A program made the translations under genes and the position numbers. From Cohnella algarum (lineage in GTDB: Bacteria; Bacillota; Bacilli; Paenibacillales; Paenibacillaceae), in the NCBI RefSeq assembly GCF_016937515.1, contig NZ_JAFHKM010000002.1:6071001-6135000 (forward strand): 64,000 nt of DNA, given 5' to 3'. Below, piece by piece: positions 25,120-47,261 of this stretch; the stretch's first letter is position 1; the number at the start of each line of letters is the position of its first letter. Below the pieces are notes generated by a model that was not told the origin of the DNA, searched no databases, and saw nothing but the letters and a program-made list of their open reading frames with translations.

Positions 25120-25533
25120 CATACGTGCGGAGGCGATGAGATGAGTCACCATGACTCAAATGGATCGTTAGCGCGCGTGCGGTGGCGATGAGATGAGTCA
25201 CCATGACTCAAATGAATCGTTAGCGCGCTCTGCGGTGGCGGCGAGATGAGTCACCATGACTCAAATGAATCGTTAGCGCGCTCTGCGGTGGCGGCGAGAT
25301 GAGTCACCACGACTCAAATGGATCGTTAGCGCTCGTGCGGTGGCGGCGAGATGAGTCACCACGACTCAAATGGATCGTTAGCGCGCGTGCGGTGGCGATG
25401 AGATGAGTCACCATGACTCAAATGAATCGTTAGCGCGCATGCGGTGGCGGCGAGATGAGTAACCACGACTCAAATGGATCGTTAGCGCGCGTGCGGTGGC
25501 GGCGAGATGAGTAACCATGACTCAAATGGATCC
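25120..25533. repeat. Tandem array 1: eight copies of a 52-53 bp palindromic repeat
   Basis: Copies start at 25141, 25193, 25246, 25299, 25351, 25403, 25455 and 25507. Each begins ATGAGTCACCAYGACTCAAA, so TGAGTC and GACTCA form a six-bp inverted repeat around five bases, followed by TGRATCGTTAGCGC and a GC-rich tail. The last copy diverges after GGATC. The unit has no spacer-like unique part. The period is not a multiple of three, so it is not a protein repeat. It lies upstream of the dehydrogenase operon and shares its core with array 2 at 45.2 kb. Confidence 0.93.
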
Positions 25534-25968
25534 GCTGAGGGTCGAACCGACTATCGGCGTGGACGAGGAATATCGCTGGAGAAATGGTTTACGTCGTCCG
25601 AGCGTGCGCCCGCGCCCGCAAGCTTGCTCAGCGCTTTCGAACGGCGATGAATTTGAACATTCTTTTATACGAAGAAAACGTCAGGGTACATCGCCTGTGG
25701 CATTCGCTCAGAAGAGCGAACTCCAAAGCAGAAGAACTTTCAATGGATCGAATGCCTGTCATGCCGAGTTGCGGTACTTGGGCACAGAGGAACACGAACG
25801 GAGAATAGCCCCGCAAGCGGTCGGCTTGGCGGGCAACCCGGAAGACGTGCGCTTCGTTCGAAGACGCGCGCTCTCCCGAACCGCCGTTCAAGCCCGGCCT
25901 GCGGGGCGACGTTATCGTGCCTGATTGCATCTGACCGTATCCGATCGAATCTATCGGTCCGGAACCGA
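25534..25968. other. Gene-free stretch downstream of the hybrid regulator
   Basis: About 435 bases follow array 1 up to the 3' end of the GntR-SBP gene. Short open frames exist on both strands but lack ribosome sites and recognisable protein features. No terminator with a T run, repeat or RNA was recognised. Confidence 0.5.
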
Positions 25969-27402
25969 TTATCCGCGTTCTCCCGACGGAACTTCCCGGC
26001 CTTCCCCGCCGGGAACGCTCGCGGGCGCGAACAGCGTCCTGAGCTTGCCGTGAAGCTCGGGTTCGTCGATCATGCCGGACCAGTATTCCTTCAAGCCTTT
26101 CGTCAGTTGCCGCAAGTCGTCGATTCGCAGCCCGATGTCCCGGTGGTAGGCAAACGAAGGAAACATCTCGCGGAACATGGAGTAGCGGGACGGACGTTTC
26201 AAGCCTTCGCCGAGCGGCCGTTCCGCCGACTCCTTCCGCGCGGGAATGCTCACCGTCCGGTCGCGGATCAGATTTTGCGCTTCGGCCGACGTCAGAAACT
26301 CGACGAACCGCCGGGCCGCTTCCTTCGCGTTGGAATGGCGCACGAGCGACACCCCGATCGACAGCAGCAGCGTCCGCTGCGGGTCGCCCCGCCGCAGGCT
26401 CGGGAGCGGACAAATATCGTATTCCAGCGGCAGGTGGGCGAATTCGTTCAAGTTGAAGTACGTGCACAAAATCACGGAAACTTGCCCGTCGGCGAACAGC
26501 TGGACCGTTTCGTCGTTGCCGTGCGCCCAATAATTCGGAAACACGTCGCGGCTCGCGATGAGCCCGTTCAGCGTATCGAGCCCTTCGATCACTTTCGAAT
26601 CGATCGGAACCGCCCCGCCCGGGGCGTTCGTCCGGTTGCCCATGCCTTGCAGCAGAAAGACCGAATACCGGTTTTCCGACGTCGGCAAAAAGTAAATGCC
26701 GTGGCGGCCGCGGGTTTCGGCCAGCTTGGCGGCGGCGTTTTGCAAATCGTGCCACGTCCAGTAGCTGTCCGGCTCGTGCAGCCCCGCTTCGCGGAAATGG
26801 GCCTTGTTATAGCACAATACGACGGGCGAGAACGAGACCGGCTTGGCATAGGTCGCCCCCTCGAACTGAAACGCCTCCTCCGCGATCGGGTACAGCTCCC
26901 GGTCGGGCTCCAGCTCCTCGAGCAGCGGAGCAAGTCCGAGTTCGGTCCATTCCTGGAATTGCGGGCTGTTGAACGTAACGATGTCCAGCAGGCCGTTCGC
27001 GATCATTTCTTCGGCGGATTGCACGTAGCTTCCATGGTTAAGCGTAATCCGCCGGACGTGAATGCCCGGGTTTCGGCGGCTGAATTCCGAAATCAACTCG
27101 TCGATGCGAAAATCCGTCGGCAGCGAAATCGGACAGCCGAAATTGAGCGTGATCGCCTCTTTCGCCCTGGGCGTTACCATGCTGCCGACCCTGTCGATCT
27201 TGACGATCAGCTGCTCTTCGACGAGCTGGTCGAGCCCTTTCCGGATCGATTTGTTGCTCAAGTTGAACTGCTTGGCCAGCGCGCTCTCCGAAGGCAGGTA
27301 GGTTCCCTCCTGGCGGATGCCGTTCAAAATTTCCATCCGGAGCACGCTGACGAAATGGTCCAGCCGTTCCTGGAAGGACGGGCGGTCTGATTTATAACTC
27401 AT
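25969..27402 (-). CDS. GntR winged-helix regulator fused to a solute-binding-protein domain
   Basis: A 477-residue protein with two parts. Residues about 10-78 are a GntR-type winged helix (LRMEILNGIRQEGTYLPSES, ALAKQFNLSNKSIRKGLDQL). Residues about 84-460 resemble a family 1 extracellular sugar-binding protein (ELISEFSRRNPGIHVRRI, YAKPVSFSPVVLCYNKAHF, AARRFVEFLTSAEAQNLI). There is no signal peptide, so the binding domain should work in the cytoplasm as an effector sensor. The ATG at 27400-27402 has AGGTGA seven bases upstream. It lies between the dehydrogenase operon and the divergent Rieske gene and is the likely regulator of both. Confidence 0.9.
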   Translation of the reverse strand: MSYKSDRPSFQERLDHFVSVLRMEILNGIRQEGTYLPSESALAKQFNLSNKSIRKGLDQLVEEQLIVKIDRVGSMVTPRAKEAITLNFGCPISLPTDFRIDELISEFSRRNPGIHVRRITLNHGSYVQSAEEMIANGLLDIVTFNSPQFQEWTELGLAPLLEELEPDRELYPIAEEAFQFEGATYAKPVSFSPVVLCYNKAHFREAGLHEPDSYWTWHDLQNAAAKLAETRGRHGIYFLPTSENRYSVFLLQGMGNRTNAPGGAVPIDSKVIEGLDTLNGLIASRDVFPNYWAHGNDETVQLFADGQVSVILCTYFNLNEFAHLPLEYDICPLPSLRRGDPQRTLLLSIGVSLVRHSNAKEAARRFVEFLTSAEAQNLIRDRTVSIPARKESAERPLGEGLKRPSRYSMFREMFPSFAYHRDIGLRIDDLRQLTKGLKEYWSGMIDEPELHGKLRTLFAPASVPGGEGREVPSGERG

Positions 27403-27444
27403 GTATACTTCACCTATTTCTCGCATCATAAACATCAGAATTTA

Positions 27445-27472
27445 TTTTTAAGCATTTCCTATCAAATGTCAA
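27445..27472 (-). promoter_or_regulatory. Probable promoter of the GntR-SBP gene
   Basis: Read on the minus strand, TTGACA (27467-27472) and TAAAAA (27445-27450) are 16 bases apart, about 45 bases ahead of the chosen start codon. The -35 is perfect, the -10 weak. Confidence 0.5.
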
Positions 27473-27528
27473 CTCCTCGACCGCGTTCGGAAGAAGCCCC
27501 TTGACGCAGGCCTCTTATGTGATTTAAA

Positions 27529-27557
27529 TTGACACAAACCGAACCTGTTTTTATATC
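27529..27557 (+). promoter_or_regulatory. Probable promoter of the Rieske oxygenase gene
   Basis: TTGACA (27529-27534) and TATATC (27552-27557) are 17 bases apart and 24 bases ahead of the ATG. GTGATTTA just upstream (around 27520) resembles the CTGATTTA units before the dehydrogenase operon, hinting at a shared regulator. Confidence 0.6.
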
Positions 27558-27580
27558 GCTCGAATGAAGGAAGTGGTCGC

Positions 27581-28558
27581 ATGCTTAAAGAAAAAAACGC
27601 TCTGTCGAACGACTGGCATCCGGTCATCATGTCGGCCGATCTGGCGGAACGCCCCGTGTCCGCCGTCGTCTTCGGCGAGAAAATCGTCGTGTTCCGGACG
27701 AGCGGCGGGGTTCATGCCTTCAAGGATTTATGCATCCATCGCGGCGTCCCGCTGTCGCTGGGCAAGGTGGAAAACGACGAACTCGTCTGCCCTTACCACG
27801 GCTGGCGGTACGACGGCTGCGGAGCCTGCGTGCGCATTCCGGCGCTGCCGCCGGAGCAAAAAATTCCCGCCAAGGCGAAAGCGATCGCCTATTCGTGCGT
27901 CGAATCCCGGGGCATCGTCTGGGTATGCCTCGGAACGCCAAGCGGCGCCCATCCGCTGGTCGGCACGGAGCCGGAGCCCGGCTTCAAGGATTTGCCGATC
28001 GGCCCTTACGACCTTCAAGCGGCCGCGCCCCGTTCGGTGGAAAATTTTCTCGACGTTTCCCATTTGATGTTCGTTCACGAAGGCCTGCTCGGCGACAGCC
28101 AATTTCCCGAGATCAACGATTACCATGTGCATGAAATCGACGGCGTTCTCCGCTCGGACGAAATCGTCGTCTACCAGCCCGATCCCGACGGGCGCGGCAA
28201 GGGCGTAAACAGCATTTACGTTTACGAGGTGTTCGGGCCGTTCTGCGTCGCGTTTACGAAACGCAGCGACGACTCGGACGAAGTCATGCGGCTGTACATG
28301 ATCGTCCTGCCGGAAAGCGAGAAGAGCAGCCGGGCGTTCATGCTCCAGCAGCGGAATTACTCGTTCGACGTGGACGACGAGGTGTTCATCCGCTTTCAGG
28401 ACACGCTGCTCGAGCAGGACCGGGTCATGCTGGAGAACCAGAAGCCGGAGCTGCTTCCGCTGGATTTGCAAGCCGAGCTGCACCTGAAATCCGACCGAAT
28501 GAGCATCGCCTACCGGAAGAAACTCAAGGATTGGGGCGTCACGTTCGGAACCGAATGA
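27581..28558 (+). CDS. Rieske non-heme iron oxygenase, catalytic subunit
   Basis: A 325-residue oxygenase. The N-terminal Rieske domain binds a 2Fe-2S cluster through C51-x-H53 (LCIHRG) and C70-x2-H73 (CPYHGW). The catalytic domain has the mononuclear-iron motif N155, D158, H161, H166 (VENFLDVSHLMFVHEG), with a further Asp likely near residue 290 (LLEQDRVMLE). Its length fits the VanA/chlorophyllide-oxygenase-like group that demethylates or hydroxylates small substrates. No reductase or ferredoxin gene is in the window, so electrons must come from elsewhere. It is divergent from the GntR-SBP gene and probably opens or finishes the same catabolic route. Confidence 0.92.
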   Translation: MLKEKNALSNDWHPVIMSADLAERPVSAVVFGEKIVVFRTSGGVHAFKDLCIHRGVPLSLGKVENDELVCPYHGWRYDGCGACVRIPALPPEQKIPAKAKAIAYSCVESRGIVWVCLGTPSGAHPLVGTEPEPGFKDLPIGPYDLQAAAPRSVENFLDVSHLMFVHEGLLGDSQFPEINDYHVHEIDGVLRSDEIVVYQPDPDGRGKGVNSIYVYEVFGPFCVAFTKRSDDSDEVMRLYMIVLPESEKSSRAFMLQQRNYSFDVDDEVFIRFQDTLLEQDRVMLENQKPELLPLDLQAELHLKSDRMSIAYRKKLKDWGVTFGTE

Positions 28559-28607
28559 ATGCGGCCTCGATTGTTACGGCCGATCTCGCCCCCCGGACCG
28601 ATCCCGG

Positions 28608-28781
28608 GAAAATCTTTACCGTTTTTATGTCTTCGCGGGAATCGGAATCAGCTTTGGCTTCATTTATTACGTGGCCAAAGGCATTCATTTCTCATCCGGC
28701 TCCAGAGGCAAAAAAACGCAAAAAGAAGCCTCCGGCCAAAAGGCGGCCGAAGGCGAGGTCGCGACCGAACGCGGCGAGTAA
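28608..28781 (+). pseudogene. Small membrane-peptide frame without a usable start codon
   Basis: An open frame of 57 codons reads ENLYRFYVFAGIGISFGF and continues IYYVAKGIHFSSGSRGKK, then a charged tail ending TERGE and TAA. It looks like a genuine one-helix membrane protein. No ATG, GTG or TTG lies in this frame before the helix. An ATG at 28555 overlapping the Rieske stop is in another frame, so a one- or two-base shift would restore a protein. It may be a decayed gene or a sequencing slip. The rest of 28559-28886 shows nothing else. Confidence 0.4.
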
Positions 28782-28886
28782 CGGGTACTTCCATTGCGAG
28801 CAGCCGGGGCCTCTCGCGCTCCCGGCTTTTCTCGCAAGGCGTCAAGCTCCGCGGCCGCAAAAGCCGGGCGATCGTCCCCGCTACGC

Positions 28887-30470
28887 TCACCACCCGATCG
28901 CCGCGCCGTCGCACCGGGGATCCGTGCCTCCGACCCGGAAGCCGTTGTCGTCGATTTGAATCGCATGGGCGTGGCCGACGACGCCGTCGTACGCTTCCAC
29001 GGTCCGGACGAGATGGCCCGCCTCCGCGAGCGCCTGCCGAACCGGTTCGGATATCCGGCTTTCCAGCCGCAGCTCCCGAGTCGGTTCCCCCCACGAACGT
29101 CCCCATAACCATCGCGGCTCCGATACGGCCTGCTGCGGGTTCATTCCGTAGTCGATCATCCGGGTGAGCAGCGCCGTCTGCGTTTGCGGCTGACCCTCCC
29201 CGCCCTGCGTCCCGTACAGAATATAGGGCTTGCCGTCCCGGCACGCCATCGCCGGCATAAGCGTATGGAACGTCCGCTTGTTCGGCTCGAGCCGGTTGAC
29301 GTGATTCGGATCGAGAGAGAAGAAGGAGCCCCGGTTTTGCAGCAAAATGCCCGTATCGCCGGCCGTAACCGCAGAGCCGAATTCGAAATACAGACTTTGG
29401 ATAAAAGACACCGCATTCCCTTCTCCGTCGACGACCGCCGCGTAGGCCGTGTCGCTCCCGATCGGATTGGCGGCGTATTCGAGCGCTCGCGCCCGGTCGA
29501 TTTGCCGGGCCAGTTCCTCGGCGTACGTTTTCGAGAGCAGCCGCTCGAGCGGAACTTCGGCGAATTCCGGATCGCTCAAATACCGGTCGCGATCCTTGAA
29601 CGACAATTTCAGCGCCTCGATAAGAAGATGATAATAATCGTAGGAGCCGTGTTCGATGGACGGCAAATCGAAACGCTCCAGCATGTGCAGCGTCATAATG
29701 CCGGTAAAGCCCTGCGAATTGGGCGGCAGCTGGTACAGCTCGTGCCCGCGGTACGAGCCCTTCGCCGGCGCGACCCAGTTGCCGGCATGCCGCTCGAAAT
29801 CCTCGAGCGTCAGCAGTCCGCCCCGATCCTTAAGCGAACCTGCGATGCGCTTCGCCAGATCGCCTTTGTAGAAAGCGTCGCGGCCTTTCGTCGCGAGCTC
29901 TTTGAGGCTCTTCGCCAGCTGCGGCTGCTTCCACTTCGCGCCGGCTGCCGGCACGCTCCCGCCCGGCAGGAAAATATCCGCCGTGAACGGCTCGGCGGCC
30001 AAAACGGCGAACCGGCTCACCGTATTTTCGTGCTGGTCCGGCGAAACCGGAAAGCCTTCCGCCGCATACTCGACGGCCGGCTCCAGCACCTCGCTCCAGG
30101 GCAATCTGCCGTATTCGCGGTGAACCGCATCCCAGCCGTCGACCATGCCGGGCACGGTGACGACGCTGCGGACGCCTCGCTGCGGAATGGCGTCTTCGCC
30201 GGCAAACGTATCCCGCGTGACGAGCCGCCCGGACCGTCCGCTTCCGTTGTACGCCCTGACGCCGCCTTCCCCGCTATCGTGCAACAGCCAAAAGGAGTCT
30301 CCGCCTAGCCCGGTCATATGCGGGTAAACGACGGCGAGACAGGCGCTGACCGCCACCGCCGCATCGAAGGCGTTGCCTCCTTTTTGCAGGATGCGCGCTC
30401 CGGCCGCGGAGGCCAGATGATGGGGGCTGACGACCATCGTTTTCGTTCCGGTTATCGGTTTAGGGATCAA
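28887..30470 (-). CDS. Gamma-glutamyltransferase family protein (YwrD-like)
   Basis: A protein of about 527 residues of the N-terminal-nucleophile gamma-glutamyltransferase family, which matures by cutting itself before the catalytic Thr. That residue is probably Thr341 (IGSDTAYAAVVDGEGNAVS). Other family texts are TGTKTMVVSPHHLAS, GGNAFDAAVA and TGLGGDSFWLL. The TTG at 30468-30470 (LIPKPITGTK) is chosen because GGAG lies upstream and the length fits YwrD. A GTG at 30569 would add 33 poorly conserved residues. No signal peptide is seen, so it should be cytoplasmic. The substrate may be glutathione-like or another gamma-glutamyl amide. Confidence 0.85.
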   Translation of the reverse strand: MIPKPITGTKTMVVSPHHLASAAGARILQKGGNAFDAAVAVSACLAVVYPHMTGLGGDSFWLLHDSGEGGVRAYNGSGRSGRLVTRDTFAGEDAIPQRGVRSVVTVPGMVDGWDAVHREYGRLPWSEVLEPAVEYAAEGFPVSPDQHENTVSRFAVLAAEPFTADIFLPGGSVPAAGAKWKQPQLAKSLKELATKGRDAFYKGDLAKRIAGSLKDRGGLLTLEDFERHAGNWVAPAKGSYRGHELYQLPPNSQGFTGIMTLHMLERFDLPSIEHGSYDYYHLLIEALKLSFKDRDRYLSDPEFAEVPLERLLSKTYAEELARQIDRARALEYAANPIGSDTAYAAVVDGEGNAVSFIQSLYFEFGSAVTAGDTGILLQNRGSFFSLDPNHVNRLEPNKRTFHTLMPAMACRDGKPYILYGTQGGEGQPQTQTALLTRMIDYGMNPQQAVSEPRWLWGRSWGEPTRELRLESRISEPVRQALAEAGHLVRTVEAYDGVVGHAHAIQIDDNGFRVGGTDPRCDGAAIGW

Positions 30471-30720
30471 GTTCGTTCGCTCCGTTCGTCGGTTAATAAA
30501 AATAACGGTCTTCCGAACCGTTTCGGTTGTCCCATGATGCTTGCTGAAACGATCATTGGGGCCTGACACTTGCTTTTCATCTTACCTTCTTTTTTTCGCA
30601 AAGTCATGACCCCCGAAACGTCCTTGTACAGGTTCCTAAAAAACGGGAACCCGTTTGTGGCGCATGCATAAAGGACGTACTCCGTTCGCATGACCCGGTG
30701 TGGGATTCCGTAAGATTGTG

Positions 30721-30803
30721 CGGGGGTGTGCGGGGGGTGCGGGGGTGCGGGGGGTGCGGGGGGTGCGGGGGGTGCGGGGGTGCGGGGGGTGCGGGGGGTG
30801 CGG
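30721..30803. repeat. G-rich tandem repeat (GGTGCGGGG-like units)
   Basis: About nine units of 9-10 bases built on GGTGCGGGG/GGTGCGGGGG run without interruption. Runs of four to six G on the plus strand make G-quadruplex formation likely. Short Gly/Val/Arg repeat frames through it are artefacts of composition. It lies within the 800-base gap 30471-31282, which has no credible gene but also holds the two inverted-repeat features listed next. Confidence 0.85.
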
Positions 30804-30827
30804 AACGACGCTGATTCGACGATGCTT

Positions 30828-31008
30828 GGTTGGAATTTATCCAACCCAAATCGGCTTTTTCGCAAACCTTTTTGGCTTGATTGGATTTTGTCCAATCTGG
30901 CGAGACCTTTACCGCGTTTTCGCCCCAATTTCAGGCTCCTCGTTGGATAAAATCCACTCTAGATCACGATTTCCCCGTTTTCCGCTCCCTTGATTGGACA
31001 AAATCCAA
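30828..31008. repeat. Four small palindromes of one family, two in each orientation
   Basis: Palindromic units built on TTGGA...TCCAA occur at 30828-30846 (GGTTGGAATTTATCCAACC), 30879-30897 (GATTGGATTTTGTCCAATC), 30943-30956 (TTGGATAAAATCCA) and 30994-31008 (TTGGACAAAATCCAA). The fourth is the exact reverse complement of the core of the second. The spacing is about 50-65 bases. They could form single hairpins or one larger cruciform. Function is unknown. Confidence 0.75.
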
Positions 31009-31091
31009 CATAGGCCTCTATCCGCTTGAGCGATCCCACTCCGCCTCCCCTTATTTTTCATAAAACTCTTTGGCAAGGCGAAGAACTTGAA

Positions 31092-31132
31092 CGTTCCAAT
31101 ATGCCAAGCAAAACGCTTGGCATATTGGAACG
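31092..31132. repeat. Perfect 18-bp inverted repeat with a five-base loop
   Basis: The arms at 31092-31109 and 31115-31132 are exact reverse complements (CGTTCCAATATGCCAAGC against GCTTGGCATATTGGAACG) with loop AAAAC. No T run follows on either strand, so it is not a standard terminator. It lies about 150 bases after the stop codon of the GH105 gene, where it could stabilise the 3' end of that message. Confidence 0.85.
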
Positions 31133-31282
31133 GCAGCGCCTTCGTAGCGGGACGAAGCGCTAGAGGGGGAGACCGGATGAGCAAGTTGCGCGGCGAACGA
31201 GCCGATGAAGGCGAAATTTTCGGGTACATTCGAGGGTTGCGCGGATTCAAAACCGGACATGCGCCCGGCATCGCGAACCGAT

Positions 31283-32404
31283 TCAAAAAGCAAGCTCCAT
31301 CGCGGCAAGCAGGAAAGGCGCGACCCCTTTCGGATCGTCGCAGACGACGGGCTCCCCGACGTAGTAGGCGAAGGAGCCGTCCCGATACGGATGGCCGCCC
31401 AGCCCGGCGACCCGGTTGATGCGGCAGAGGCGGAACGTTCCGTCCGCATCGGCGCGCGCCGCATGCCGGAGCAAGCCCGCGAAGCCCCGCTCGGCCGTCC
31501 CTTCGAAGACGGAAGGAACGACGCCAAGCCGGATTCCTTTCAAAATGGCGTAGACGAACATGGCGGTCCCGGAAGCTTCGGCGTAATTGCCTTCGCGGCC
31601 GCCCGCGTCCGTAATTTGATGCCACATGCCGGTTTCGGCATCCTGGTAAACCGTTACCGCCGACACGAGCCGCTCCAACATCGCGGCAAGCCGGCTCTTC
31701 CCGACGTGCCCGGCCGGAAACCGCTCGAGCGAATCCGCGAGCGCCATCATGTACCAGCCGATCGAGCGGCTCCAGAAATGCGGCGAGCAGCCGGTGATGC
31801 GGTCGGCCCACGCCTGCTCCCTCGATTCGTCCCAGCCGTGGTAAAGCAGGCCCGTCTTCGGGTCGCGCGCATGACGCTCCATCAGCTCGAACTGGATCGC
31901 GATATCGTCGAACTCCTCCGGCCGGCCCGATCCGAACGCGGCCGCGAGCATGCAGCGGAACGGACCTGCCATGTACAGCCCGTCCAGCCACATTTGCCGC
32001 GGATAAATCCGCTTGTGCCAGTACCCGCCCTCCGTCGTCCGGGGCTGCTTCTCAAGCTGAAGCGAAAGCAGCCGAATCGCCTTCGCGTACTTCTCCCGGC
32101 CGGTCCGCTCGTACAGCGGAAACAGCAGCCGGCCCATGTTGATCTGATCCAGATTGTAATCGGTCCGTTCGTACGTGCGGATCGCGCCGTCTTCCGTCAC
32201 GTAACGGTCGACCTGCTCCCGGACCAGCCCGAAATGCCGTTCGTCTCCCGTTAGCTGGTATAGCCGGTAGATCGCATGCAGCATCGTGCCGTTCTCGTAA
32301 TTCCAGGTGTCGGCGTACGGCGGCTTCCGGCCGGCACGATAGATTCGCCCGGCATAGGCATCCGTCCACTCCGCAACCTTCTCGCGCAATTCGGCCCGGT
32401 TCAC
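31283..32404 (-). CDS. Unsaturated rhamnogalacturonyl hydrolase, GH105 (YteR/YesR-like)
   Basis: A 373-residue (alpha/alpha)6-barrel enzyme, the same length as B. subtilis YteR. It removes the unsaturated galacturonyl residue that pectate/rhamnogalacturonan lyases leave on oligosaccharides. The general acid/base is probably Asp141 (RQMWLDGLYMAGPF). Other family texts are TWNYENGTMLHAIYRLY, RSIGWYMMALADSLE and EASGTAMFVYAI. The start is GTG (32402-32404), seven bases after GGGAGGG. No signal peptide is present, so it acts on imported sugars. It is the last gene of the importer operon, which points to pectin side-chain oligosaccharides as the substrate. Confidence 0.93.
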   Translation of the reverse strand: MNRAELREKVAEWTDAYAGRIYRAGRKPPYADTWNYENGTMLHAIYRLYQLTGDERHFGLVREQVDRYVTEDGAIRTYERTDYNLDQINMGRLLFPLYERTGREKYAKAIRLLSLQLEKQPRTTEGGYWHKRIYPRQMWLDGLYMAGPFRCMLAAAFGSGRPEEFDDIAIQFELMERHARDPKTGLLYHGWDESREQAWADRITGCSPHFWSRSIGWYMMALADSLERFPAGHVGKSRLAAMLERLVSAVTVYQDAETGMWHQITDAGGREGNYAEASGTAMFVYAILKGIRLGVVPSVFEGTAERGFAGLLRHAARADADGTFRLCRINRVAGLGGHPYRDGSFAYYVGEPVVCDDPKGVAPFLLAAMELAF

Positions 32405-32511
32405 ATCGCTTCCCTCCCGTCCGCAGCTTTCCGCCGCGCGTCTTCCGCGAACGCGTGCCGGTGCGGCGCCGGGCGTCTTTTCCCGGCGCCGGTCGGCTCG
32501 CCCGCTCTCCG

Positions 32512-34014: not shown

Positions 34015-34046
34015 TTCGCAATCCCCCTATTCGAATTGTAGGCCGG

Positions 34047-34919: not shown

Positions 34920-34955
34920 AACGGCGAATGCCTCCTTTCGGCCGCGACACGCGGC

Positions 34956-35906: not shown

Positions 35907-36002
35907 GGTCGTTCCCTCCCTTCGTCTTGTCTGTCCCGATTATCGCCCGGAGCCGGATGCCAATAAATCCTCCGCTCTTAACCTCTTGGCGCCGGGGCGT
36001 TG

Positions 36003-36018
36003 TTGTAAGCGAATACAA
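36003..36018. promoter_or_regulatory. CcpA catabolite-response element (cre)
   Basis: TTGTAAGCGAATACAA matches every position of the B. subtilis cre consensus WTGNNARCGNWWWCAW. It lies in the gap between the membrane AraC regulator and the importer operon, about 100 bases ahead of the LplB-like start, where CcpA would repress the operon when preferred sugars are present. Confidence 0.8.
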
Positions 36019-36085
36019 AGAGGGATGCGCAGCTTTTAACCGCCCGATATGCCGCTTTGAACCTCGAAGCTCCGAATTCCGAACC

Positions 36086-38443: not shown

Positions 38444-38574
38444 GCTCCGAATCCTCCCCCGGTAGAACGATGCCGGACGTATGCCGAATTTAACCTGTAC
38501 GCCCGTTTGTTTAGAATCGCATACGAACGCCGTTTCCGTCTATATGCAGGGATTAACCAAATCGGGAAAAACGA

Positions 38575-38604
38575 AAAGAAGCGAAGCCCTCGCGGCCCGC
38601 TTCG
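38575..38604 (-). terminator. Probable terminator of the hypothetical gene at 38630
   Basis: CGAAGC (38582-38587) pairs with GCTTCG (38599-38604) around a GC-rich loop. On the minus strand the stem is followed by TTCTTTTCGTTTTT. The stem is short. Confidence 0.45.
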
Positions 38605-38629
38605 TCTTTGTCCCGCCTGCTCTTGTCTT

Positions 38630-39187
38630 TTACCGGTTATGCGGCGTGGCCGGCGCGTTTTGCGCCGGATGCGGAGCGTCGTTCGTGCCGCGAATCGTTT
38701 GCTCGGCGAATTCTTCCCCGCGCTTGGCATATTGATTGCCTTTGTTTTTCTTGTACTTGTCTCCCACGAAGCTTCCTCCTCCCGTTTCATGTCGCGTTTC
38801 CAAAATGCCCATCGACTCGATATGCCGCTTCGTTTCCTCCGTGCCGAGACGATGCAGCAAACCGTAAATATTTTGCAGCTGCGAATCGTAGAATTCGTTT
38901 CGGCGTTCGTCGCTTACGCTGAGCGCCGACGGAAAATGAAACGCCGCCGCCTCGTCCGCGCTCGACAGCTCGCCGAACAGTTCCTGCAGCTCGTTCACTT
39001 CCTCGTCGCTTGCCCGGATCTCGAATTCGAAAGCGGCGGCTTCTTTATCCTCCAGCACCTGACCGGCTCCGACCGCCACGTAATACGTTTTCCGGTTTGC
39101 GTCCGCGGGCGGGTCCGCGTTTTCGACAGCTCCGGTTGCACCGCCCGTTTCCTTGCCGATTGTTTCGTCGTTTTGCTCGATTGCCAA
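38630..39187 (-). CDS. Conserved-looking hypothetical protein
   Basis: A 185-residue acidic protein that begins at TTG (39185-39187), eight bases after AAGGAGG. No ATG fits as well. The middle (KTYYVAVGAGQVLEDKE, FEFEIRASDEEVNELQELF) looks like an alpha/beta fold. The segment ESMGILETRHETGGGS leads into a Lys/Gly/Asn-rich tail. No membrane helix or catalytic motif was recognised, and I do not recognise the family. It is divergent from the asparagine synthase gene, so the 160-base gap should hold both promoters. Confidence 0.7.
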   Translation of the reverse strand: MAIEQNDETIGKETGGATGAVENADPPADANRKTYYVAVGAGQVLEDKEAAAFEFEIRASDEEVNELQELFGELSSADEAAAFHFPSALSVSDERRNEFYDSQLQNIYGLLHRLGTEETKRHIESMGILETRHETGGGSFVGDKYKKNKGNQYAKRGEEFAEQTIRGTNDAPHPAQNAPATPHNR

Positions 39188-39347
39188 CGCGACAGCCTCC
39201 TTTCACTTCCCTATGGTAACCAACGCGTCGGCTTTCATGCTTGTCCAGAGTCAAAACGGGCCCCCGCGGAATACAGTGTAATCGGGATGTTTGACTAGAG
39301 CTTTACCGTCCGTGCCCGGATGGACGAAACGGGGAGGATGAATGTTT

Positions 39348-41201
39348 ATGTGCGGAATTACCGGTTGGATCGATTGGAAGGTCGATTTGACGAAACAAGC
39401 GAACATCGTGGAAAAAATGACGGAGACGCTGCAGCTGCGCGGACCCGACGCGTCCGGCACATGGCTATCGCGAAGCTGCGCGTTCGGCCATCGGCGGCTG
39501 AGCGTCATGGACCCGCTGAACGGCGCCCAGCCGATGATTCGCCCGACCCGAACGGCGGACGATCACGACTGCGTCATCGTCTATAACGGAGAGCTGTACA
39601 ATGCGCCGGAGCTGAGAAAGGAACTCGAGCTGCGGGGACATTCCTTTCGCACGACTTGCGATACGGAAGTGCTGCTGCTCTCCTACGTCGAGTGGGGGCC
39701 GGCCTGCGTGGACAAATTGAACGGCATTTTCGCGTTCGCGATTTGGCGGACCGACGAGGAAAAGCTGTTTATGGCGAGGGACCGGCTTGGCGTCAAGCCG
39801 CTTTTTTATCGGCGGGAAGAAGGCAGGCTGCTGTTCGGATCGGAGCCGAAAGCGATTTTGGCGCATCCGGACGTGCCGGCCGAAGTGGACGGCGAGGGGC
39901 TTGCCGAGCTGTTCGCCCTCGGCCCGGCGCGCACGCCGGGAGTCGGCGTCTGGCGCGGCATGTCCGAGCTGAAGCCGGGACATTGCCTGACGTACGACCG
40001 CGACGGCATGAAAATAGCCGCGTATTGGCGGCTATCCAGCCGGCCGCATGAGGAAGACGAGCGGGCGACGGCCGAGCGGGTCGGCGAACTGCTCGACGAT
40101 ACGGTGCGGCGGCAGCTCGTCTCCGACGTGCCCGTCTGCACCCTGCTCTCGGGCGGACTCGATTCGAGCGCCCTGACGGCGCTGGCCGTCCGCTATTACG
40201 GGGAAACGGAGCAAGGCCAGGTCCATACGTACTCGATCGACTACGTGGATAACGACAAGCATTTTACCGCCCACGACTTCCAGCCGAATTCGGACGCTCC
40301 CTGGATCAAGAGAATGAACGAGTTTCTCGGCACGAACCACCATTACGTCCAGTTCGACACGCCCGAACTCGTCGAAGCGCTGGAAGCGGCCGTCCTCGCG
40401 AAAGACGTGCCCGGCATGGCGGACATCGACGCGTCGCTGTATTTGTTTTGCCGGGAAATCAAAAAGGACGCCACCGTCGCCATTTCCGGCGAAGCGGCCG
40501 ACGAGGTGTTCGGCGGCTATCCGTGGTTCCACCGGCAGGAAGCGCTGACCGCCTCGACCTTCCCGTGGTCGCTGTCGGCCGGGCTTCGGGAAAGCGTCCT
40601 GTCGCCCGAGCTTAAAGCGCACATACGTCCGCTCGACTACATCGCGGACCGGTACGCCCAGGCGCTGGGCGAAGTGCCGAAGCTGCAGGGAGAAGACGAA
40701 GCGGCGGCAAGGATGCGCGTCATGTCGTACTTGAACATCACCCGCTTCATGCCGACGCTGCTCGACCGCAAAGACCGGATGAGCATGGCCGCCGGCCTCG
40801 AGGTGCGGGTTCCCTTCTGCGACCATCGGCTCGTCGAATACGTGTTCAACATCCCATGGGAACTCAAAATGGCGGGACAGCGCGAAAAAGGCATTTTGCG
40901 CCGGGCGCTGGAAGGCGTGCTGCCGGACGACGTGCTGTACCGGAAAAAAAGCCCCTATCCGAAAACCCACAACCCGGCCTACCTCGAAGCGGTTCGCTCG
41001 CTCCTGACGGAGCGGCTGAACGACCCGTCGTCGCCGCTGCTGCCGCTCATCGACGCGGAGCATATCCGCGGCCTGGTCCGGACGGCCGACGCGCGCTCCC
41101 ATCTGCCGTGGTTCGGCCAGCTGATGTCGGCGCCGCAGCTGTTCGCCTATTTGCTGCAATTCGATTTCTGGCTGCGGAAATACAACGTGTCGATCGTGTA
41201 A
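39348..41201 (+). CDS. asnB: Asparagine synthase (glutamine-hydrolysing)
   Basis: A 617-residue class II amidotransferase that makes asparagine from aspartate, glutamine and ATP. The start at 39348 (MCGITGW) leaves Cys2, the glutaminase nucleophile, in place after processing; an ATG two codons upstream would bury it. The glutaminase domain has RGPDASGTW, GHRRLSVMDP and YNGELYN. The synthetase domain has the pyrophosphate loop SGGLDSS near residue 268 and SGEAADEVFGGYPWF. Length resembles B. subtilis AsnO/YisO, a sporulation-linked copy, although the exact paralogue cannot be told. GGAGG lies ten bases upstream. Confidence 0.93.
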   Translation: MCGITGWIDWKVDLTKQANIVEKMTETLQLRGPDASGTWLSRSCAFGHRRLSVMDPLNGAQPMIRPTRTADDHDCVIVYNGELYNAPELRKELELRGHSFRTTCDTEVLLLSYVEWGPACVDKLNGIFAFAIWRTDEEKLFMARDRLGVKPLFYRREEGRLLFGSEPKAILAHPDVPAEVDGEGLAELFALGPARTPGVGVWRGMSELKPGHCLTYDRDGMKIAAYWRLSSRPHEEDERATAERVGELLDDTVRRQLVSDVPVCTLLSGGLDSSALTALAVRYYGETEQGQVHTYSIDYVDNDKHFTAHDFQPNSDAPWIKRMNEFLGTNHHYVQFDTPELVEALEAAVLAKDVPGMADIDASLYLFCREIKKDATVAISGEAADEVFGGYPWFHRQEALTASTFPWSLSAGLRESVLSPELKAHIRPLDYIADRYAQALGEVPKLQGEDEAAARMRVMSYLNITRFMPTLLDRKDRMSMAAGLEVRVPFCDHRLVEYVFNIPWELKMAGQREKGILRRALEGVLPDDVLYRKKSPYPKTHNPAYLEAVRSLLTERLNDPSSPLLPLIDAEHIRGLVRTADARSHLPWFGQLMSAPQLFAYLLQFDFWLRKYNVSIV

Positions 41202-41249
41202 AAACGCGCGCGAAAAGCCGGAAATGGCCATGGCGGCGGCCGTCCCGGT

Positions 41250-41939
41250 TTACCCGTTCCGGCCCGAGTCCGGCTGCAGCTGCCCGAGAAGCTTGCGCAG
41301 GGCGTGGCCGCGGTGGCTCAGCGCGTTTTTTTCCTCGACGGTCACTTCGGCCATCGTCTTGCCCAGCTCCGGCAGCCAGAAAAGCGGATCGTAGCCGAAT
41401 CCTCCGGCGCCCGCCGGCCGGTCGACGATAAACCCGCGGACCTCGCCTTCCGCCGCCGCCCGAACCCGGCCGTCCGGATATGCCAGCACGAGCGAGCTGA
41501 CGAAGCGCGCCGGACTTAGCAGCCTCGCCCCTTCCGGCAATGACGCGCCGGCCTCCGCGGCGATAACGGCGGAATCCGCCGAGCGTTCGCCGACGGCCGC
41601 CGCCAGTTCCCGCAGCAGCTTCGCGTTGTTGTCGGCGTCGCCGGCGCCTTCCCCCGCGTAGCGCGCCGAGTAAACGCCCGGCGCGCCTTGGAGCGCGTCG
41701 ACGCAAAGACCCGAGTCGTCGGCCAGCGCCGGCAGTCCGGTCGCTTTCGCGACGGCTTGGGCCTTGATCAGCGCGTTATCGTAAAAGGTCGCGCCCGTCT
41801 CCTCGATCTCCGGAATGTCCTGCTCGAGCTCGTTCAAATCTTTCGTCTCGAGCCCCAGCTGCGCAAAGGCGGCGCGAAACTCCCGCGTCTTGCCCCGGTT
41901 GCGGGTCGCGACGATGACCGTTCCGCCGGCGCCGATCAT
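41250..41939 (-). CDS. XTP/dITP diphosphatase (RdgB/HAM1 family)
   Basis: A 229-residue house-cleaning enzyme that hydrolyses non-canonical purine triphosphates. Family motifs are [11 protein letters not shown] at the start, [23 protein letters not shown] and LSHRGHAL. It is about 30 residues longer than usual because of an Ala/Glu-rich insertion in the middle (around [20 protein letters not shown]). The start overlaps the stop of RNase PH by four bases (ATGA), so the two are coupled, as in B. subtilis rph-ysnA. Confidence 0.93.
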
Positions 41940-42682
41940 AGGTGCACCGTCCCGATTCTCGCGCCCGCTTCGCCGAGCGAATCGCGCTGCATCGCGATCA
42001 GCTGCCGGATGCCTTCTTCGGCCGCTTCGAGCAAATCGTCAAGTTCCTCCCGCGAGAAAGGCGCCTCCTCGCCGGTCCCCTGCACCTCCACGAACGAACC
42101 GTTGCCGGTCATGACCACGTTCATGTCCACCTTGGCCTTGGAGTCCTCTTCGTAATTCAGGTCCAGCAGCGTCTGCCCTTGAAGCTGTCCGACGCTGATC
42201 GAAGCCAAATAGTCGGAAACCGGATAGGTCGCAAACGAAACCGTCTTGGATAGCTTATGTACGGCGAGAGCGAGCGCGATAAACGCTCCCGTAATCGAGG
42301 TCGTCCGGGTTCCGCCGTCCGCCTGCAGCACGTCGCAGTCCAGCGTAATCGTTCGTTCGCCGAGCGCGTCAAGGCGAACGACGGAGCGCAGCGCCCGGCC
42401 GATCAATCGCTGGATTTCCATCGTGCGGCCGGTCAATTTCCCCCGGCTCGCTTCCCGCGGGTTCCGCGTTTGCGTCGCGCGGGGCAGCATCGAATATTCG
42501 GCCGTCACCCAGCCCTTGCCCTGCCCTTTCATGAAGGGCGGCACTTTCTCGTCTACCGTGGCGGTGCAGAGCACCTTCGTATCGCCCATCTCGATGAGCA
42601 CCGAGCCCTCGGCAAATTTATTCGGATGTAGCGTTACGGCAAACGGCCGCAGCTCGCGGGGTTGCCTTCCGTCGGATCGCAT
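41936..42682 (-). CDS. rph: Ribonuclease PH
   Basis: A 248-residue phosphorolytic 3'-5' exoribonuclease that trims tRNA 3' ends. Diagnostic texts are [39 protein letters not shown] and [18 protein letters not shown]. Length and sequence are those of a standard RNase PH. The ATG follows CAGGAGG. It lies between gerM and the XTP pyrophosphatase gene, an order conserved in Bacillales. Confidence 0.96.
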
Positions 42683-42862
42683 ATCGGTTATTCCTCCTGA
42701 TTCTCGTCAAATCTCTCCCATTTTACCAAAGTCCCCGGTCAAAAGCACACCGCCGGAAGGCAAACGCGGGAAGCGGCTTCAAACGTATGGCTTTCCGGCC
42801 GGCGGGCAATCTAGGGAAACCGCGTTCCGCGGCGAACGCCCGGCCGGAGCGTTTCGAGGGCA

Positions 42863-42904
42863 AAAGACAGACTGCGCCTCCTCCTTGAATCGGAAAAGGC
42901 GCAG
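42863..42904 (-). terminator. Probable terminator downstream of gerM
   Basis: CTGCGCCT (42872-42879) and AGGCGCAG (42897-42904) form an eight-bp perfect stem with a 17-base loop. On the minus strand the exit reads TCTGTCTTTTG. It lies within the 320-base gap between gerM and rph (42683-43001), in which no gene is seen. Confidence 0.5.
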
Positions 42905-43001
42905 CCGTTCGGCGCGGCGGAAAACGGCTTTTCGAAATCCGAAATCCCTTTTCCGCGAGGGCGTTTTTCGTTCGATGCTCTTCCAAGCTTCGGGCGGTAC
43001 G

Positions 43002-44234
43002 TTAGCGGGTCAGCGCGTTGATTCGCTCGGGGCGGCCGACCGGTTCCGAATAGGACGTCTTGGCGGAATCGACCAGCGATTCCTCGCCGTTGATGGAAAT
43101 ATGGACTTTCCGCGAGCCCGCGGATTCCGTAATCGTAAGCACGACGGCCTGCATCATGTCCGCAGATACCGTTTGTTCGGGCTCCCACCCCGCATCCTTA
43201 AGCGAAACGTCGATCCGGTCGGACGCCGTCGCGAGTTCCTCCACGGTAACGGACGGGGCTACGACGGGCAGCAGATGGTCGCGGTCGCCCGGCCCTTTGA
43301 TCAGCTCCTCCAAGGCGGCCCGGCCTTTGTCCGCGGTGCGTTCGACCAGGCGAGTAACCGGAATGAAGTAGCCTTCTCCCTCTTCCGATCGGGCGGAGAA
43401 GTAAAGCGTGACGGCCATCGATCGGCTGGCCTGAATGCCGGGAGTCCGCTCGAGATTGATCCCGTAGCTCCGGGTGAGGGTCTCGGCCAGCGGAAGGCCG
43501 GAAGCCGGAAGCTGGCGGAGCGGCTGACCGCCGCTTTCGATTTTGACCTGACGGATGCCGGGAATTTCCGTCATCGTCCAGACGATAGCTTCGACCGTTT
43601 TTCGCTCGCGGTCCGCGGCAAGCTTCGGAAACGGCTGGGCGAAATTCACGGTTGCGGTCCCCGTTTCTTCGTCGGTTTTAATGGATTCGAAAACCGTGCC
43701 CTCGGGCAAAATCGGGGCGAATCCTTGCGGCAGCTGCTCGGCTTGACCGGATTTTTCGACGAGCCAGGCGGCCGCTTTTTCTTCCTGGGAGCGCTTGTCC
43801 GCGCCGTTTTGCGGAAGGCTTAACGTCATCGGCGCCAAATAACCGTTGCGATCCATCAGATAGACGGTAAGCTCGTCCGCTTGTTGGCCGGCCGCTTCCG
43901 CCGCTGCGGGATGCGAGGTTCCGGACCCGGATGGCGCTCCGTTGCCGGAAGCCGCCTGCGCTCCGATTTGGGAATCGGCAGGCGTTTCCGTTTGCGCGCC
44001 GGGTTCCCCTTCCGGTTGGGCGACGGCAGGCGTTTCCGGCTCGCCCGTTCCCGTCGGGGCCTGCAGCCCGGCCTCTGCGGCCTGAATCATCTGCCGTTCC
44101 AGCTCTGCCGGCGGCGGGTCGATGGGGTTCGAGCTTTGCGAACCCAGATCGCCCAGTCCGCAGGCCGCGAGAGGAATCAGCACGGCTACGGCAAGCAGCT
44201 TGGCGTAACGGCTTCTTCGTTTTTTCCGTTTCAT
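43002..44234 (-). CDS. gerM: Spore germination lipoprotein GerM
   Basis: A 410-residue lipoprotein (lipobox LAAC, Cys25) with a Pro/Gly/Ala/Glu-rich linker of about 100 residues followed by two GerMN domains. The first runs over LTVYLMDRNGYLAP and FESIKTDEETGTATVNFAQP. The second runs over AVTLYFSARSEEGEGYFIPV and IDVSLKDAGWEPEQTVSADM. GerM takes part in sporulation septum/engulfment events and germination. The linker is longer than in B. subtilis. The ATG follows TAGGAGG. The neighbours rph and the XTP pyrophosphatase gene keep the Bacillales order. Confidence 0.93.
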   Translation of the reverse strand: MKRKKRRSRYAKLLAVAVLIPLAACGLGDLGSQSSNPIDPPPAELERQMIQAAEAGLQAPTGTGEPETPAVAQPEGEPGAQTETPADSQIGAQAASGNGAPSGSGTSHPAAAEAAGQQADELTVYLMDRNGYLAPMTLSLPQNGADKRSQEEKAAAWLVEKSGQAEQLPQGFAPILPEGTVFESIKTDEETGTATVNFAQPFPKLAADRERKTVEAIVWTMTEIPGIRQVKIESGGQPLRQLPASGLPLAETLTRSYGINLERTPGIQASRSMAVTLYFSARSEEGEGYFIPVTRLVERTADKGRAALEELIKGPGDRDHLLPVVAPSVTVEELATASDRIDVSLKDAGWEPEQTVSADMMQAVVLTITESAGSRKVHISINGEESLVDSAKTSYSEPVGRPERINALTR

Positions 44235-44370
44235 CCAAATTCCTCCTAGTCGGGGGATTCGTTAACACCCTTTTCCCCGTTTGTAGTACTATGTATACGA
44301 GCCCTGGGAATAAGATATGAAAGGTTTGTCCTGCCGCTTTGCGAAAACGGATCGAGAAGAGGTGCCATCA

Positions 44371-44913
44371 ATGTCCGAATTGAACAACTACCGCCTGAAC
44401 AGCAAAGAAGTGGCGCAAGCTACCGAGGAATGGTTGATCAAACGCGGTGTGAACAAGGGACAAATCGGCCAGCTGGTCATGCTCCTTCAAAAGGAATACT
44501 TCCCCGAATTGACGCTGGACGAATGCATAGCGAACGTGGAAGCGGTTCTGTCCAAACGCGAGGTGCAGAACGCGATTTTGACCGGCATTCAATTGGATAT
44601 TCTGGCCGAGGAAGGAAAGCTCCTGCCGCCTTTGCAAAACATGATCTGGAACGACGAAGGCCTGTACGGGTGCGACGAAGTGCTCGCCCTCAGCATCGTC
44701 AACGTCTACGGGAGCATCGGCTTTACGAATTTCGGCTACGTGGATAAGCTCAAGCCGGGCATTTTGAAAAAGCTGAACGATCGCTCCGACAAGGAAATTC
44801 ATACGTTTTTGGACGATATCGTAGGAGCGATCGCCGCCGCCGCTTCCAGCCGGATCGCGCACCGCAAGCAGGCGGAACGCGAAGCCGCCGCGGATTTCGG
44901 TTCGTCGGACTGA
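44371..44913 (+). CDS. Phosphatidylglycerophosphatase A family protein (YutG-like)
   Basis: A 180-residue protein starting MSELNNYRLNSKEVAQATEE (ATG 44371, AGAGGTG upstream). Texts such as WLIKRGVNKGQIGQLVMLLQ, LDECIANVEAVLSKREVQNA and DEVLALSIVNVYGSIGFTNF match the soluble PgpA/YutG proteins of Bacillales. These are related to phosphatidylglycerophosphate phosphatases, although the Bacillales form lacks the membrane helices of the E. coli enzyme and its activity is less sure. It is divergent from gerM and ends in a strong terminator. Confidence 0.85.
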   Translation: MSELNNYRLNSKEVAQATEEWLIKRGVNKGQIGQLVMLLQKEYFPELTLDECIANVEAVLSKREVQNAILTGIQLDILAEEGKLLPPLQNMIWNDEGLYGCDEVLALSIVNVYGSIGFTNFGYVDKLKPGILKKLNDRSDKEIHTFLDDIVGAIAAAASSRIAHRKQAEREAAADFGSSD

Positions 44914-44973
44914 GTTTACGACAAGCAGGCATCGCGGATCCGCGGGGTCTGGCTCCGTCTGCGGCGCATAAAG

Positions 44974-45017
44974 CAAAAAGCCGTTTCCCGGCATCCGCCT
45001 GGGGGACGGTTTTTTTT
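44974..45017 (+). terminator. Rho-independent terminator after the PgpA-like gene
   Basis: CCGTTTCCC (44981-44989) pairs with GGGGGACGG (45001-45009) with wobble pairs and a loop of about 11 bases. Eight T residues follow. Confidence 0.75.
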
Positions 45018-45144
45018 GCGCGCTATTTCTTTCGCATGCGTGTCGGCGGCTCCGGAAGCTGACGACCGGGCGAACGACTTTTGTATAAACGATTGATAGG
45101 TTGAGATGGGTCAAAGCAACTCGTGCAAGTACGGTTGGATGCGT

Positions 45145-45831
45145 CCGGCGGGGCCAGATGAGCAACTACGACTCAACTGATTCGACGGTGGGCGCGCGGA
45201 GGGGGCCAGATGAGTCCGCCACGACTCAAATGGTTCCACAGCGAGCGCGCGGAGGGGGCCAGATGAGTCGCTACGACTCAAATGGTTCCACAGCGAGCGC
45301 GCGGAGGGGCCAGATGAGTAACTACGACTCAAATGGTTCCACAGTAGGCGCCGCGGAGAGGCCAGATGAGTCGCTACGACTCAGATGGTTCCACAGTAGG
45401 CGCCGCGGAGAGGCCAGATGAGTCGCTACGACTCAACTGGTTCCGCAGCGAGCGCGGAGGGGGCGAGATGAGTCGCTACGACTCAACTGGTTCCACAGTA
45501 GGCGCCGCGGAGGGGCCAGATGAGTCGCTACGACTCAACTGGTTCCACAGTAGGCGCCGCGGAGGGGCCAGATGAGTCGCTACGACTCAACTGGTTCCAC
45601 AGTAGGCGCCGCGGAGAGGCCAGATGAGTCGCTACGACTCAACTGGTTCCACAGCGGGCGCCGCGGAGGGGGCCAGATGAGTCGCCACGACTCAGATGGT
45701 TCCACAGCGGGCGCGCGGAGGGGGCCAGATGAGTCGCTACGACTCAGATGGTTCCACAGTGCGAGCGCGGAGGGGCCAAATGAGTCGCTACGACTCAACT
45801 GGTTCCGCAGCGGGCGCGCGGAGGGGGAGAA
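45145..45831. repeat. Tandem array 2: thirteen copies of a 52-bp palindromic repeat
   Basis: Copies start at 45158, 45210, 45263, 45314, 45366, 45418, 45468, 45520, 45572, 45624, 45677, 45729 and 45780. Most are 52 bases, with a few of 50-53. The common unit is ATGAGTCGCTACGACTCAAC, then TGGTTCCACAG and a GC-rich tail ending GGGGCCAG. TGAGTC and GACTCA form a six-bp palindrome around five bases, as in array 1. It sits between the convergent 3' ends of the PgpA-like and MBL genes. Peptide frames through it shift with every copy and are not genes. Confidence 0.95.
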
Positions 45832-46952: not shown

Positions 46953-47261
46953 AACGTAGATCCGAGCATCCCTTCCGACGCAGCCGGACGACGACGCCGT
47001 CATTCGTCCGCATCCGCTTTTTTTACCCGTTATTCGCACATGCTCATTCGCTCGCGACGGAGACTTCGGGCGCGCCCCGACCATCAAAAAAACGTTTAAA
47101 ATCGTACAAACCCGCACGATAAGTATAGCCCTTTTCCGCCGATGTGGCCAATCACCGATAGATAGATGTCCTCATATGATGGAGTATTCTCGCGTGCCCC
47201 CGGGAAGGAAGCCTACGAGTCCTACGCCCAGACATTCGACACGGTGGAAGGAGAACCAAGT

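What the first reader, a model, noticed from the sequence alone, without database searches (positions are those of the whole stretch)
25120..45831. Two distant arrays of one 52-bp palindromic repeat family
Array 1 (25.1-25.5 kb, eight copies) and array 2 (45.1-45.8 kb, thirteen copies) share the same period and the same 27-base core: ATGAGTC-RCYAY-GACTCA followed by AMTGGWTC. The 25-base tails differ between arrays but are conserved within each. So the family seems to spread as a core and then amplify locally. The unit length is not a multiple of three and there are no unique spacers, so neither a protein repeat nor CRISPR fits. Array 2 sits between two convergent 3' ends; array 1 sits upstream of a catabolic operon. 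A DNA- or RNA-level role (protein-binding array, supercoil or transcription buffer) is plausible.
Basis: partly seen in the sequence, partly recalled or inferred. Interest (0 to 1): 0.7.

Follow-up and report, generated by a model that had tools for sequence, protein, structure and literature searches.

The report
Replication-oriented 52-bp palindromic DNA arrays
This bacterium carries dozens of short DNA arrays that repeat a mirror-image site every 52 letters (about five turns of the helix) and nearly all point the same way relative to DNA replication; they belong to a known but unexplained class of bacterial repeats, and the fixed direction gives a new handle on what such repeats do.

Summary
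Both arrays are real (8 and 13 units, period 52). They are two of at least 61 related arrays in this Cohnella-group genome. Most arrays alternate two units, A and B, whose spacers are unrelated but equally long; the constant parts are the dyad TGAGT-N7-ACTCA and the 52-bp step. The period belongs to a published, unexplained class: constant-length (~52 nt), variable-sequence tandem repeats of Firmicutes (PMC8161180).

Added here: (1) 58 of 61 arrays share one orientation relative to replication, flipping at oriC; gene direction does not explain it (22 of 24). (2) Array density falls away from oriC. (3) Arm changes show no G-U asymmetry, favouring a DNA site over an RNA hairpin. (4) The dyad equals the core of the HspR operator of actinobacteria, but no HspR ortholog was found in Cohnella. 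(5) Three of five syntenic AR92 loci keep an array at the same gene end.

Most likely: helically phased operator arrays for a dimeric DNA-binding protein. The protein and role are unknown. Strong polarity was seen only in this family and genome.

The parts
25140..25532 (+). Array 1: eight 52-53-bp A-type units; orientation obeys the replication rule ('+', left replichore)
25525..25686 (+). 3' flank module after the last unit of array 1, shared with other arrays (profile end at or beyond position 75 in 19 of 51 arrays)
45105..45158 (+). Degenerate first unit before array 2
45157..45829 (+). Array 2: thirteen A-type units of 50-53 bp, between two convergent gene 3' ends; orientation obeys the replication rule
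23773..24765 (-). Zinc-type dehydrogenase gene whose 5' end faces array 1
25969..27435 (-). GntR / solute-binding protein gene whose 3' end faces array 1
44317..44913 (+). PgpA-family gene whose 3' end faces array 2
45927..47117 (-). Metallo-beta-lactamase-fold gene whose 3' end faces array 2

Best explanation
DNA-level, helically phased arrays of operator-like sites. Each 52-bp unit carries a ~23-bp dyad (AGWTGAGT-N7-ACTCAWCT) read by a dimeric DNA-binding protein. 52 bp is five helical turns, so successive dimers sit on one face of the DNA and can build a multi-dimer nucleoprotein patch between genes, most densely toward the replication origin. It is a lineage-specific form of the published constant-length 52-nt tandem repeats. 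Shown by computation: the dyad, the period, two unrelated spacers of equal length, dispersal, replication polarity, origin gradient, absence of wobble asymmetry, retained positions in one relative. Inferred: that a protein binds, that it is a dimer of HspR/GlnR-like geometry, and that the patch serves chromosome organisation.
For: Steps are exactly 52 in 239 of 275 single-unit steps. Widening the allowed period from 50-54 to 37-67 adds one pair to 271 in the four positive genomes. A and B spacers are unrelated (7 of 29 identical, shuffled mean 10.2) yet equally long. Tolerance in the arms is dyad-symmetric with no G-U preference (16 against 18 arrays). 251 of 256 exact dyads in the fetched G000 regions have a partner at 52 or 104 bp. 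Three of five syntenic AR92 loci keep an array at the same gene end with different units.
Against: No binding protein is known: the HspR search found only weak matches (G000 36.8 bits; all 37 genus genomes alike), and two of the best, in AR92 and C. thailandensis, score 62 bits to the HspR model against a cut-off of 105. Several other 52-bp families in the same genomes have no significant dyad (10 of 28 do), so the dyad is not needed for the period; each dyad family would need its own protein. A dyad-symmetric operator does not by itself explain polarity. The dyad flanks differ from the recalled HspR operator.
Confidence: 0.45

Rival explanations
1. A mobile, mainly selfish satellite: an AB element with 5' and 3' modules spreads by a process coupled to lagging-strand DNA at the fork and is then amplified locally. 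Polarity, origin gradient and extragenic position are traces of insertion plus selection, not of a cell function. It can be true together with the operator reading.
For: Shared flank modules: 3' profile reaching position 75 or more in 19 of 51 arrays, 5' profile starting at or before position 133 in 8 of 51. Polarity 58 of 61 and origin gradient. Lagging-strand-template targeting is known for IS200/IS605 elements (PMC6006769, abstract in listing). Arrays under 10 kb apart are more alike (A 0.85 against 0.73; 7 pairs).
Against: No transposase is linked; exact ends, target duplications and empty sites were not mapped; three of five AR92 loci keep the position; polarity is weak or absent in other 52-bp families and in AR92.
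Confidence: 0.28
2. RNA-level role: the arrays are transcribed as strings of hairpins acting as small RNAs or sponges.
For: 52-nt repeats are transcribed in B. coagulans (PMC8625621, passages). Folding is somewhat more stable than shuffles (z -2.15 and -2.22). Terminator-like signals precede arrays in 36 of 63 facing gene ends against 86 of 168 controls, so arrays are not specially shut off from read-through.
Against: No wobble asymmetry on either strand (16 against 18; inner pair of A 6 against 11 of 51 arrays); both strands fold equally; no Rfam match in the window arrays.
Confidence: 0.1
3. Neutral minisatellites whose 51-52-bp length is set by the way they arise or expand (a length-measuring slippage or recombination process), without selection on sequence.
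For: Many unrelated units in these genomes share the length: 25 of 65 non-TGAGT tandem arrays in the fetched loci (27 counted, two being degenerate TGAGT arrays), 4 of 6 in G012 and 12 of 21 in G141 by evenly spread sampling; most of the sampled ones lack a significant dyad.
Against: Arms are conserved while spacers turn over; the exact dyad occurs almost only in arrays; G000 polarity; 400 kb of another genus has no such array.
Confidence: 0.12

Closest known systems
Constant-length 52-nt tandem repeats of Bacillus and Paenibacillus (Subirana and Messeguer 2021, PMC8161180; introduction, results part 1, discussion and tables read; their 2020 J. Bacteriol. paper was not held)
   Same: Period 51-53, several families of different sequence in one genome, species-specific sequence, short motifs and their reverse in the same repeat, partly conserved positions between strains, Firmicutes
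   Different: A/B dimer of 104 bp, one dyad shared by 61 dispersed arrays, replication polarity and origin gradient; the main text has no 'palindrom' or 'Cohnella'. Dyads turn out to be frequent in their families too (14 of 27)
HAIR, the operator of the heat-shock repressor HspR (consensus recalled)
   Same: Identical core TGAGT-N7-ACTCA; pairs often 52 bp apart in actinobacteria
   Different: HAIR occurs once or twice at a promoter; here hundreds of copies in arrays, other flanks, no HspR ortholog found
Plasmid F centromere sopC/parS_F
   Same: Tandem repeats each carrying an inverted repeat for a dimeric protein (twelve 43-bp repeats; PMC6238139 passages)
   Different: One plasmid locus, other motif and spacing; here about 61 chromosomal loci and no par genes beside the window arrays
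Noc and SlmA binding sites (listings only)
   Same: Palindromic sites scattered over the chromosome (terminus-poor: recalled)
   Different: Single sites, no phased arrays, no replication polarity known to me; the SlmA site (recalled) has no N7 gap
REP/BIME elements with RAYT transposases (recalled)
   Same: Extragenic, palindromic, clustered
   Different: Direct A/B units of constant period; no consistent Y1 transposase

Membership tests
52-nt constant-length tandem repeats | Repeat length 51-53 nt, tandem | tested here: met
   239 of 275 steps exactly 52, 273 of 275 at 50-53
52-nt constant-length tandem repeats | Several families of different sequence but the same length in one genome | tested here: met
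   G000 also has the TGTAYGATTTTTCRTACAAA family and others at 51-52/104 bp
52-nt constant-length tandem repeats | Mostly non-coding | tested here: met
   5 of 72 TGAGT arrays lie mostly in ORFs called by my simple caller
52-nt constant-length tandem repeats | Patchy, lineage-specific occurrence | tested here: met
   TGAGT pairs in 4 of 295 family genomes, 4 of 37 in the genus
HspR operator (HAIR) | Core TGAGT-N7-ACTCA | tested here: met
HspR operator (HAIR) | HspR encoded in the genome | tested here: not met
   No strong match in 37 genus genomes (best 41.2 bits, G000 36.8); two candidates below the HspR cut-off. The HspR model itself was not run over the whole genomes
REP/BIME with RAYT | Linked Y1 (RAYT) transposase | tested here: not met
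   2 of 4 array genomes, 10 of 33 others
CRISPR array | Unique spacers between repeats | tested here: not met
   Spacers conserved within and between arrays
Chromosomal or plasmid centromere (parS/sopC) | Binding by ParB with par genes at the locus | not tested
   Only the window flanks were looked at
Mobile element with lagging-strand insertion | Defined ends, target site and transposase | tested here: inconclusive
   Shared flank modules but exact ends and empty sites not mapped; no linked Y1 transposase

The most novel reading that the evidence does not exclude
The 52-nt repeats of Bacillota are a fast-evolving, centromere-like system: each lineage pairs its own dimeric DNA-binding protein with a matching dyad satellite phased at five helical turns. 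The arrays are kept between genes, weighted to the origin and held in one orientation relative to the replication fork, so they act as polar, phased landmarks for chromosome organisation. Sequence turns over while spacing, dyad geometry, place and polarity are kept.
Probability: 0.2. Interest if true: 0.88.

Novelty: new variant of a known kind. Interest (0 to 1): 0.65.

Why it matters
The 52-nt repeats are abundant in many Firmicutes and have no explained function. A family with 58 of 61 arrays oriented by replication, an explicit operator-like dyad and positions partly retained between species turns a descriptive puzzle into tests: which protein binds, whether 52-bp phasing matters, and whether polarity reflects insertion at the fork or selection by it.

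Tried and rejected
RNA hairpin role: wobble asymmetry and two-strand folding of one array; not supported. REP/RAYT link; no consistent link. HspR as binder: a Streptomyces HspR against 37 genus genomes; array genomes (36.8-38 bits) are no better than the rest (35.3-41.2). Best matches in AR92 and C. thailandensis look like GlnR (recalled) and stay under the HspR cut-off; GlnR-type proteins seem to be in all 37 genomes, so they do not track the arrays, but they are not excluded as binders.

Polarity as a result of gene direction: rejected. Polarity as a rule for all 52-bp arrays: not supported. TGTAYGA family 10 of 15 (p 0.30; one array of ambiguous strand left out). Other families 13 of 25 by base skew against local skew; TGAGT arrays of relatives 9 of 14 (C. 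fermenti), 3 of 3 (C. thailandensis), 2 of 6 (AR92) against 36 of 39 in G000. By my reading the A/B-type arrays of C. fermenti alone gave 9 of 12. The three exceptions in G000 sit in regions of normal local GC skew, so local inversions do not explain them.

Control repeat TTGGATTTTGTCCAA: 15 of 27, a weak control because the element holds both orientations. Terminators before arrays: 36 of 63 against 86 of 168 controls; the searched lengths differ (up to 700 against 200 nt), so this is loose. Position sharing: no coincidence was seen among reciprocal matches for C. fermenti or C. thailandensis loci. Two of the three shared AR92 positions were matched by eye because the G000 arrays have arm changes that the script did not accept.

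Left out before counts: the false first row of array 1 (spacing); units with more than three arm changes; units not 52 long. The gene caller is a simple GC-based one. Array numbers are lower bounds because listings are cut.
Full report
OBSERVATION. The window holds two tandem arrays of period 52, at 25124-25532 and 45146-45826, with eight and thirteen dyads of the type TGAGT-N7-ACTCA, mostly 52 bp apart. Both are intergenic. Array 2 lies between the 3' ends of a PgpA-family gene and a metallo-beta-lactamase-fold gene. Array 1 lies between the 5' end of a zinc-type dehydrogenase gene and the 3' end of a GntR/solute-binding gene.

GENOME-WIDE. The window is C2:6071001-6135000 of a 6.21-Mb genome. 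BLAST with array 2 and with an AB array, exact patterns and reading of 40 fetched 20-kb regions plus the window give 51 arrays read in full and 10 seen only in listings, 61 in all, a lower bound. The ends of C2 overlap by about 21.7 kb (17726 equals 6190940); that array is counted once.

ANATOMY. Of the 51 arrays, 48 hold both an A unit (GATGAGTCGCCACGACTCAACTGGATCG...) and a B unit (GATGAGTCATTTTTACTCAACTGCGTGCGG...), and 37 alternate strictly, a 104-bp dimer; the window arrays are A-only. The A and B spacers are unrelated (7 of 29 identical against 10.2 when shuffled) but equally long. Unit steps are 52 in 239 of 275 cases. Widening the allowed period from 50-54 to 37-67 adds one pair to 271 in the four positive genomes. 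A profile of the 3' flank reaches position 75 or more (beyond one unit) in 19 of 51 arrays, and one of the 5' flank starts at or before position 133 in 8 of 51; so at least part of the family descends from a bounded element. Exact dyads occur almost only in arrays: 251 of 256 in the fetched G000 regions have a partner at 52 or 104 bp.

REPLICATION POLARITY. dnaA is at 1,706,405, where GC skew and coding strand also flip. Arrays read '+' on the left replichore and '-' on the right in 58 of 61 cases (p 3e-14); the flip lies between 1.678 and 1.765 Mb; exceptions are 270883, 2528885 and 2907939. The terminus was taken as the point opposite oriC. Gene direction does not explain the rule: it holds in 14 of 16 convergent, 4 of 4 divergent and 4 of 4 gaps between genes on the lagging strand (22 of 24, p 4e-5), and in 25 of 26 gaps between leading-strand genes; one array at a region edge also obeys. 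Counts by distance from oriC (0.5-Mb bins) are 18, 15, 10, 10, 3, 5 (KS p 1e-4). The effect is not general: a second 52-bp family in the same genome gives 10 of 15, other families 13 of 25 by base skew, and TGAGT arrays of relatives 9 of 14, 3 of 3 and 2 of 6.

DNA OR RNA. If an RNA hairpin were selected, arm changes that keep a G-U pair would exceed their mirror changes that give A-C. They do not: 16 against 18 arrays; for an inner pair of A units 6 against 11 of 51 arrays. Tolerance is dyad-symmetric (positions 3/15 tolerant; 2/16 and 4/14 nearly fixed). One AB array folds with the same modest z-score on both strands (-2.15, -2.22). Rfam finds only a tRNA in the window. The test does not separate protein binding from a DNA cruciform.

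THE DYAD IS A KNOWN OPERATOR CORE. Of the other 109, 88 carry an HspR-type helix-turn-helix or DnaK motif in the fetched DNA, and 73 of 109 dyad pairs are 52 bp apart (corrected for two loci that one search shows to be C. fermenti). Two such proteins are HspR by NCBIfam (149 and 139 bits, cut-off 105). The HAIR consensus CTTGAGT-N7-ACTCAAG is recalled. In Cohnella the HspR query finds only weak matches (G000 36.8 bits, 37 genomes 35.3-41.2); the two examined stay under the HspR cut-off (62 bits) and look like GlnR, whose recalled operator TGTNA-N7-TNACA has the same geometry. So the site looks like an operator for a dimer of that geometry; the protein is unidentified.

RETAINED POSITIONS. Seven AR92 array loci were fetched. 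Five have reciprocal-best syntenic genes in fetched G000 loci; in three (L220/L035, L224/L038, L225/L037) an array follows the same gene end by 20-194 bp, with different units; L226/L034 and L219/L032 do not match. The G000 loci were chosen for having arrays, so the count is conditional. No such coincidence was seen for C. fermenti or C. thailandensis.

THE CLASS. Among 65 non-TGAGT tandem arrays (periods 25-124) in the fetched loci of four genomes, periods peak at 51 (16), 52 (7), 53 (2) and 104 (2); two of these 27 are degenerate TGAGT arrays. Those loci were fetched for TGAGT arrays; evenly spread samples of two other genus genomes give 4 of 6 and 12 of 21 arrays at 49-52, and 400 contiguous kb of another genus of the family one array, of period 18. 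Of 43 other-family arrays at about 52 or 104 bp, 13 lie mostly in called ORFs, so some 51-bp ones may be coding.

LITERATURE. Subirana and Messeguer 2021 (PMC8161180; introduction, results part 1, discussion and tables read) describe constant-length (51-53 nt), variable-sequence repeats in Bacillus, abundant in Paenibacillus, of unknown function, with protein polymerisation on DNA or small RNA as suggestions. A companion paper reports their transcription in B. coagulans (PMC8625621, passages). Of the 27 published consensus repeats, 14 have a dyad at p 0.05 or less against shuffles; 13 of these have an odd gap and 6 a gap of 7, as in TGAGT-N7-ACTCA. Some families are related, so the combined p (7e-16) is optimistic. 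Among 28 non-TGAGT arrays of the genus 10 do (one of the 28 is array 2 of the window read at period 53). In ten paper searches of an open-licence library I saw no report of replication polarity, A/B dimers or Cohnella arrays; the 2020 paper was not held.

INTERPRETATION. Best supported is a helically phased array of operator-like DNA sites for an unknown dimeric protein. Replication polarity and origin weighting may come from how the AB element spread or from what it does; I cannot separate these. Five turns per 52 bp uses 10.4 bp per turn (recalled).

Noticed in passing
G000 C2, e.g. 113376, 267069, 686773, 1893120, 3389758 (L010:6035-6359, L026:4595-4919): A second dispersed 52-bp array family with dyad TGTAYGATTTTTCRTACAAA in about 16 arrays; two of them also alternate two spacer types (104-bp period). 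Polarity test 10 of 15.
   Followed up: partly
L021, L034, L022 and others in G000: A dispersed composite palindromic repeat (TTGGATTTTGTCCAATC...) in intergenic gaps, often next to the 52-bp arrays; it fills the G000 gap orthologous to an AR92 array.
   Followed up: partly
L226:10171-10412 (AR92): A 51-bp tandem array with another palindrome (GAATTAGTCTC...GAGACTAATTC) directly beside a TGAGT array.
   Followed up: no
G000 C2 ends: The contig ends seem to overlap by about 21.7 kb (same array at 17726 and 6190940), an assembly redundancy.
   Followed up: no
window 30718-30803: Tandem GTGCGGGGG repeat, about 10 copies.
   Followed up: no
L057, L058, L069, L092 and other Sphingobacterium loci: Pairs of TGAGT-N7-ACTCA dyads 55 bp apart with no HspR or DnaK motif nearby, repeated across Sphingobacterium species.
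   Followed up: no
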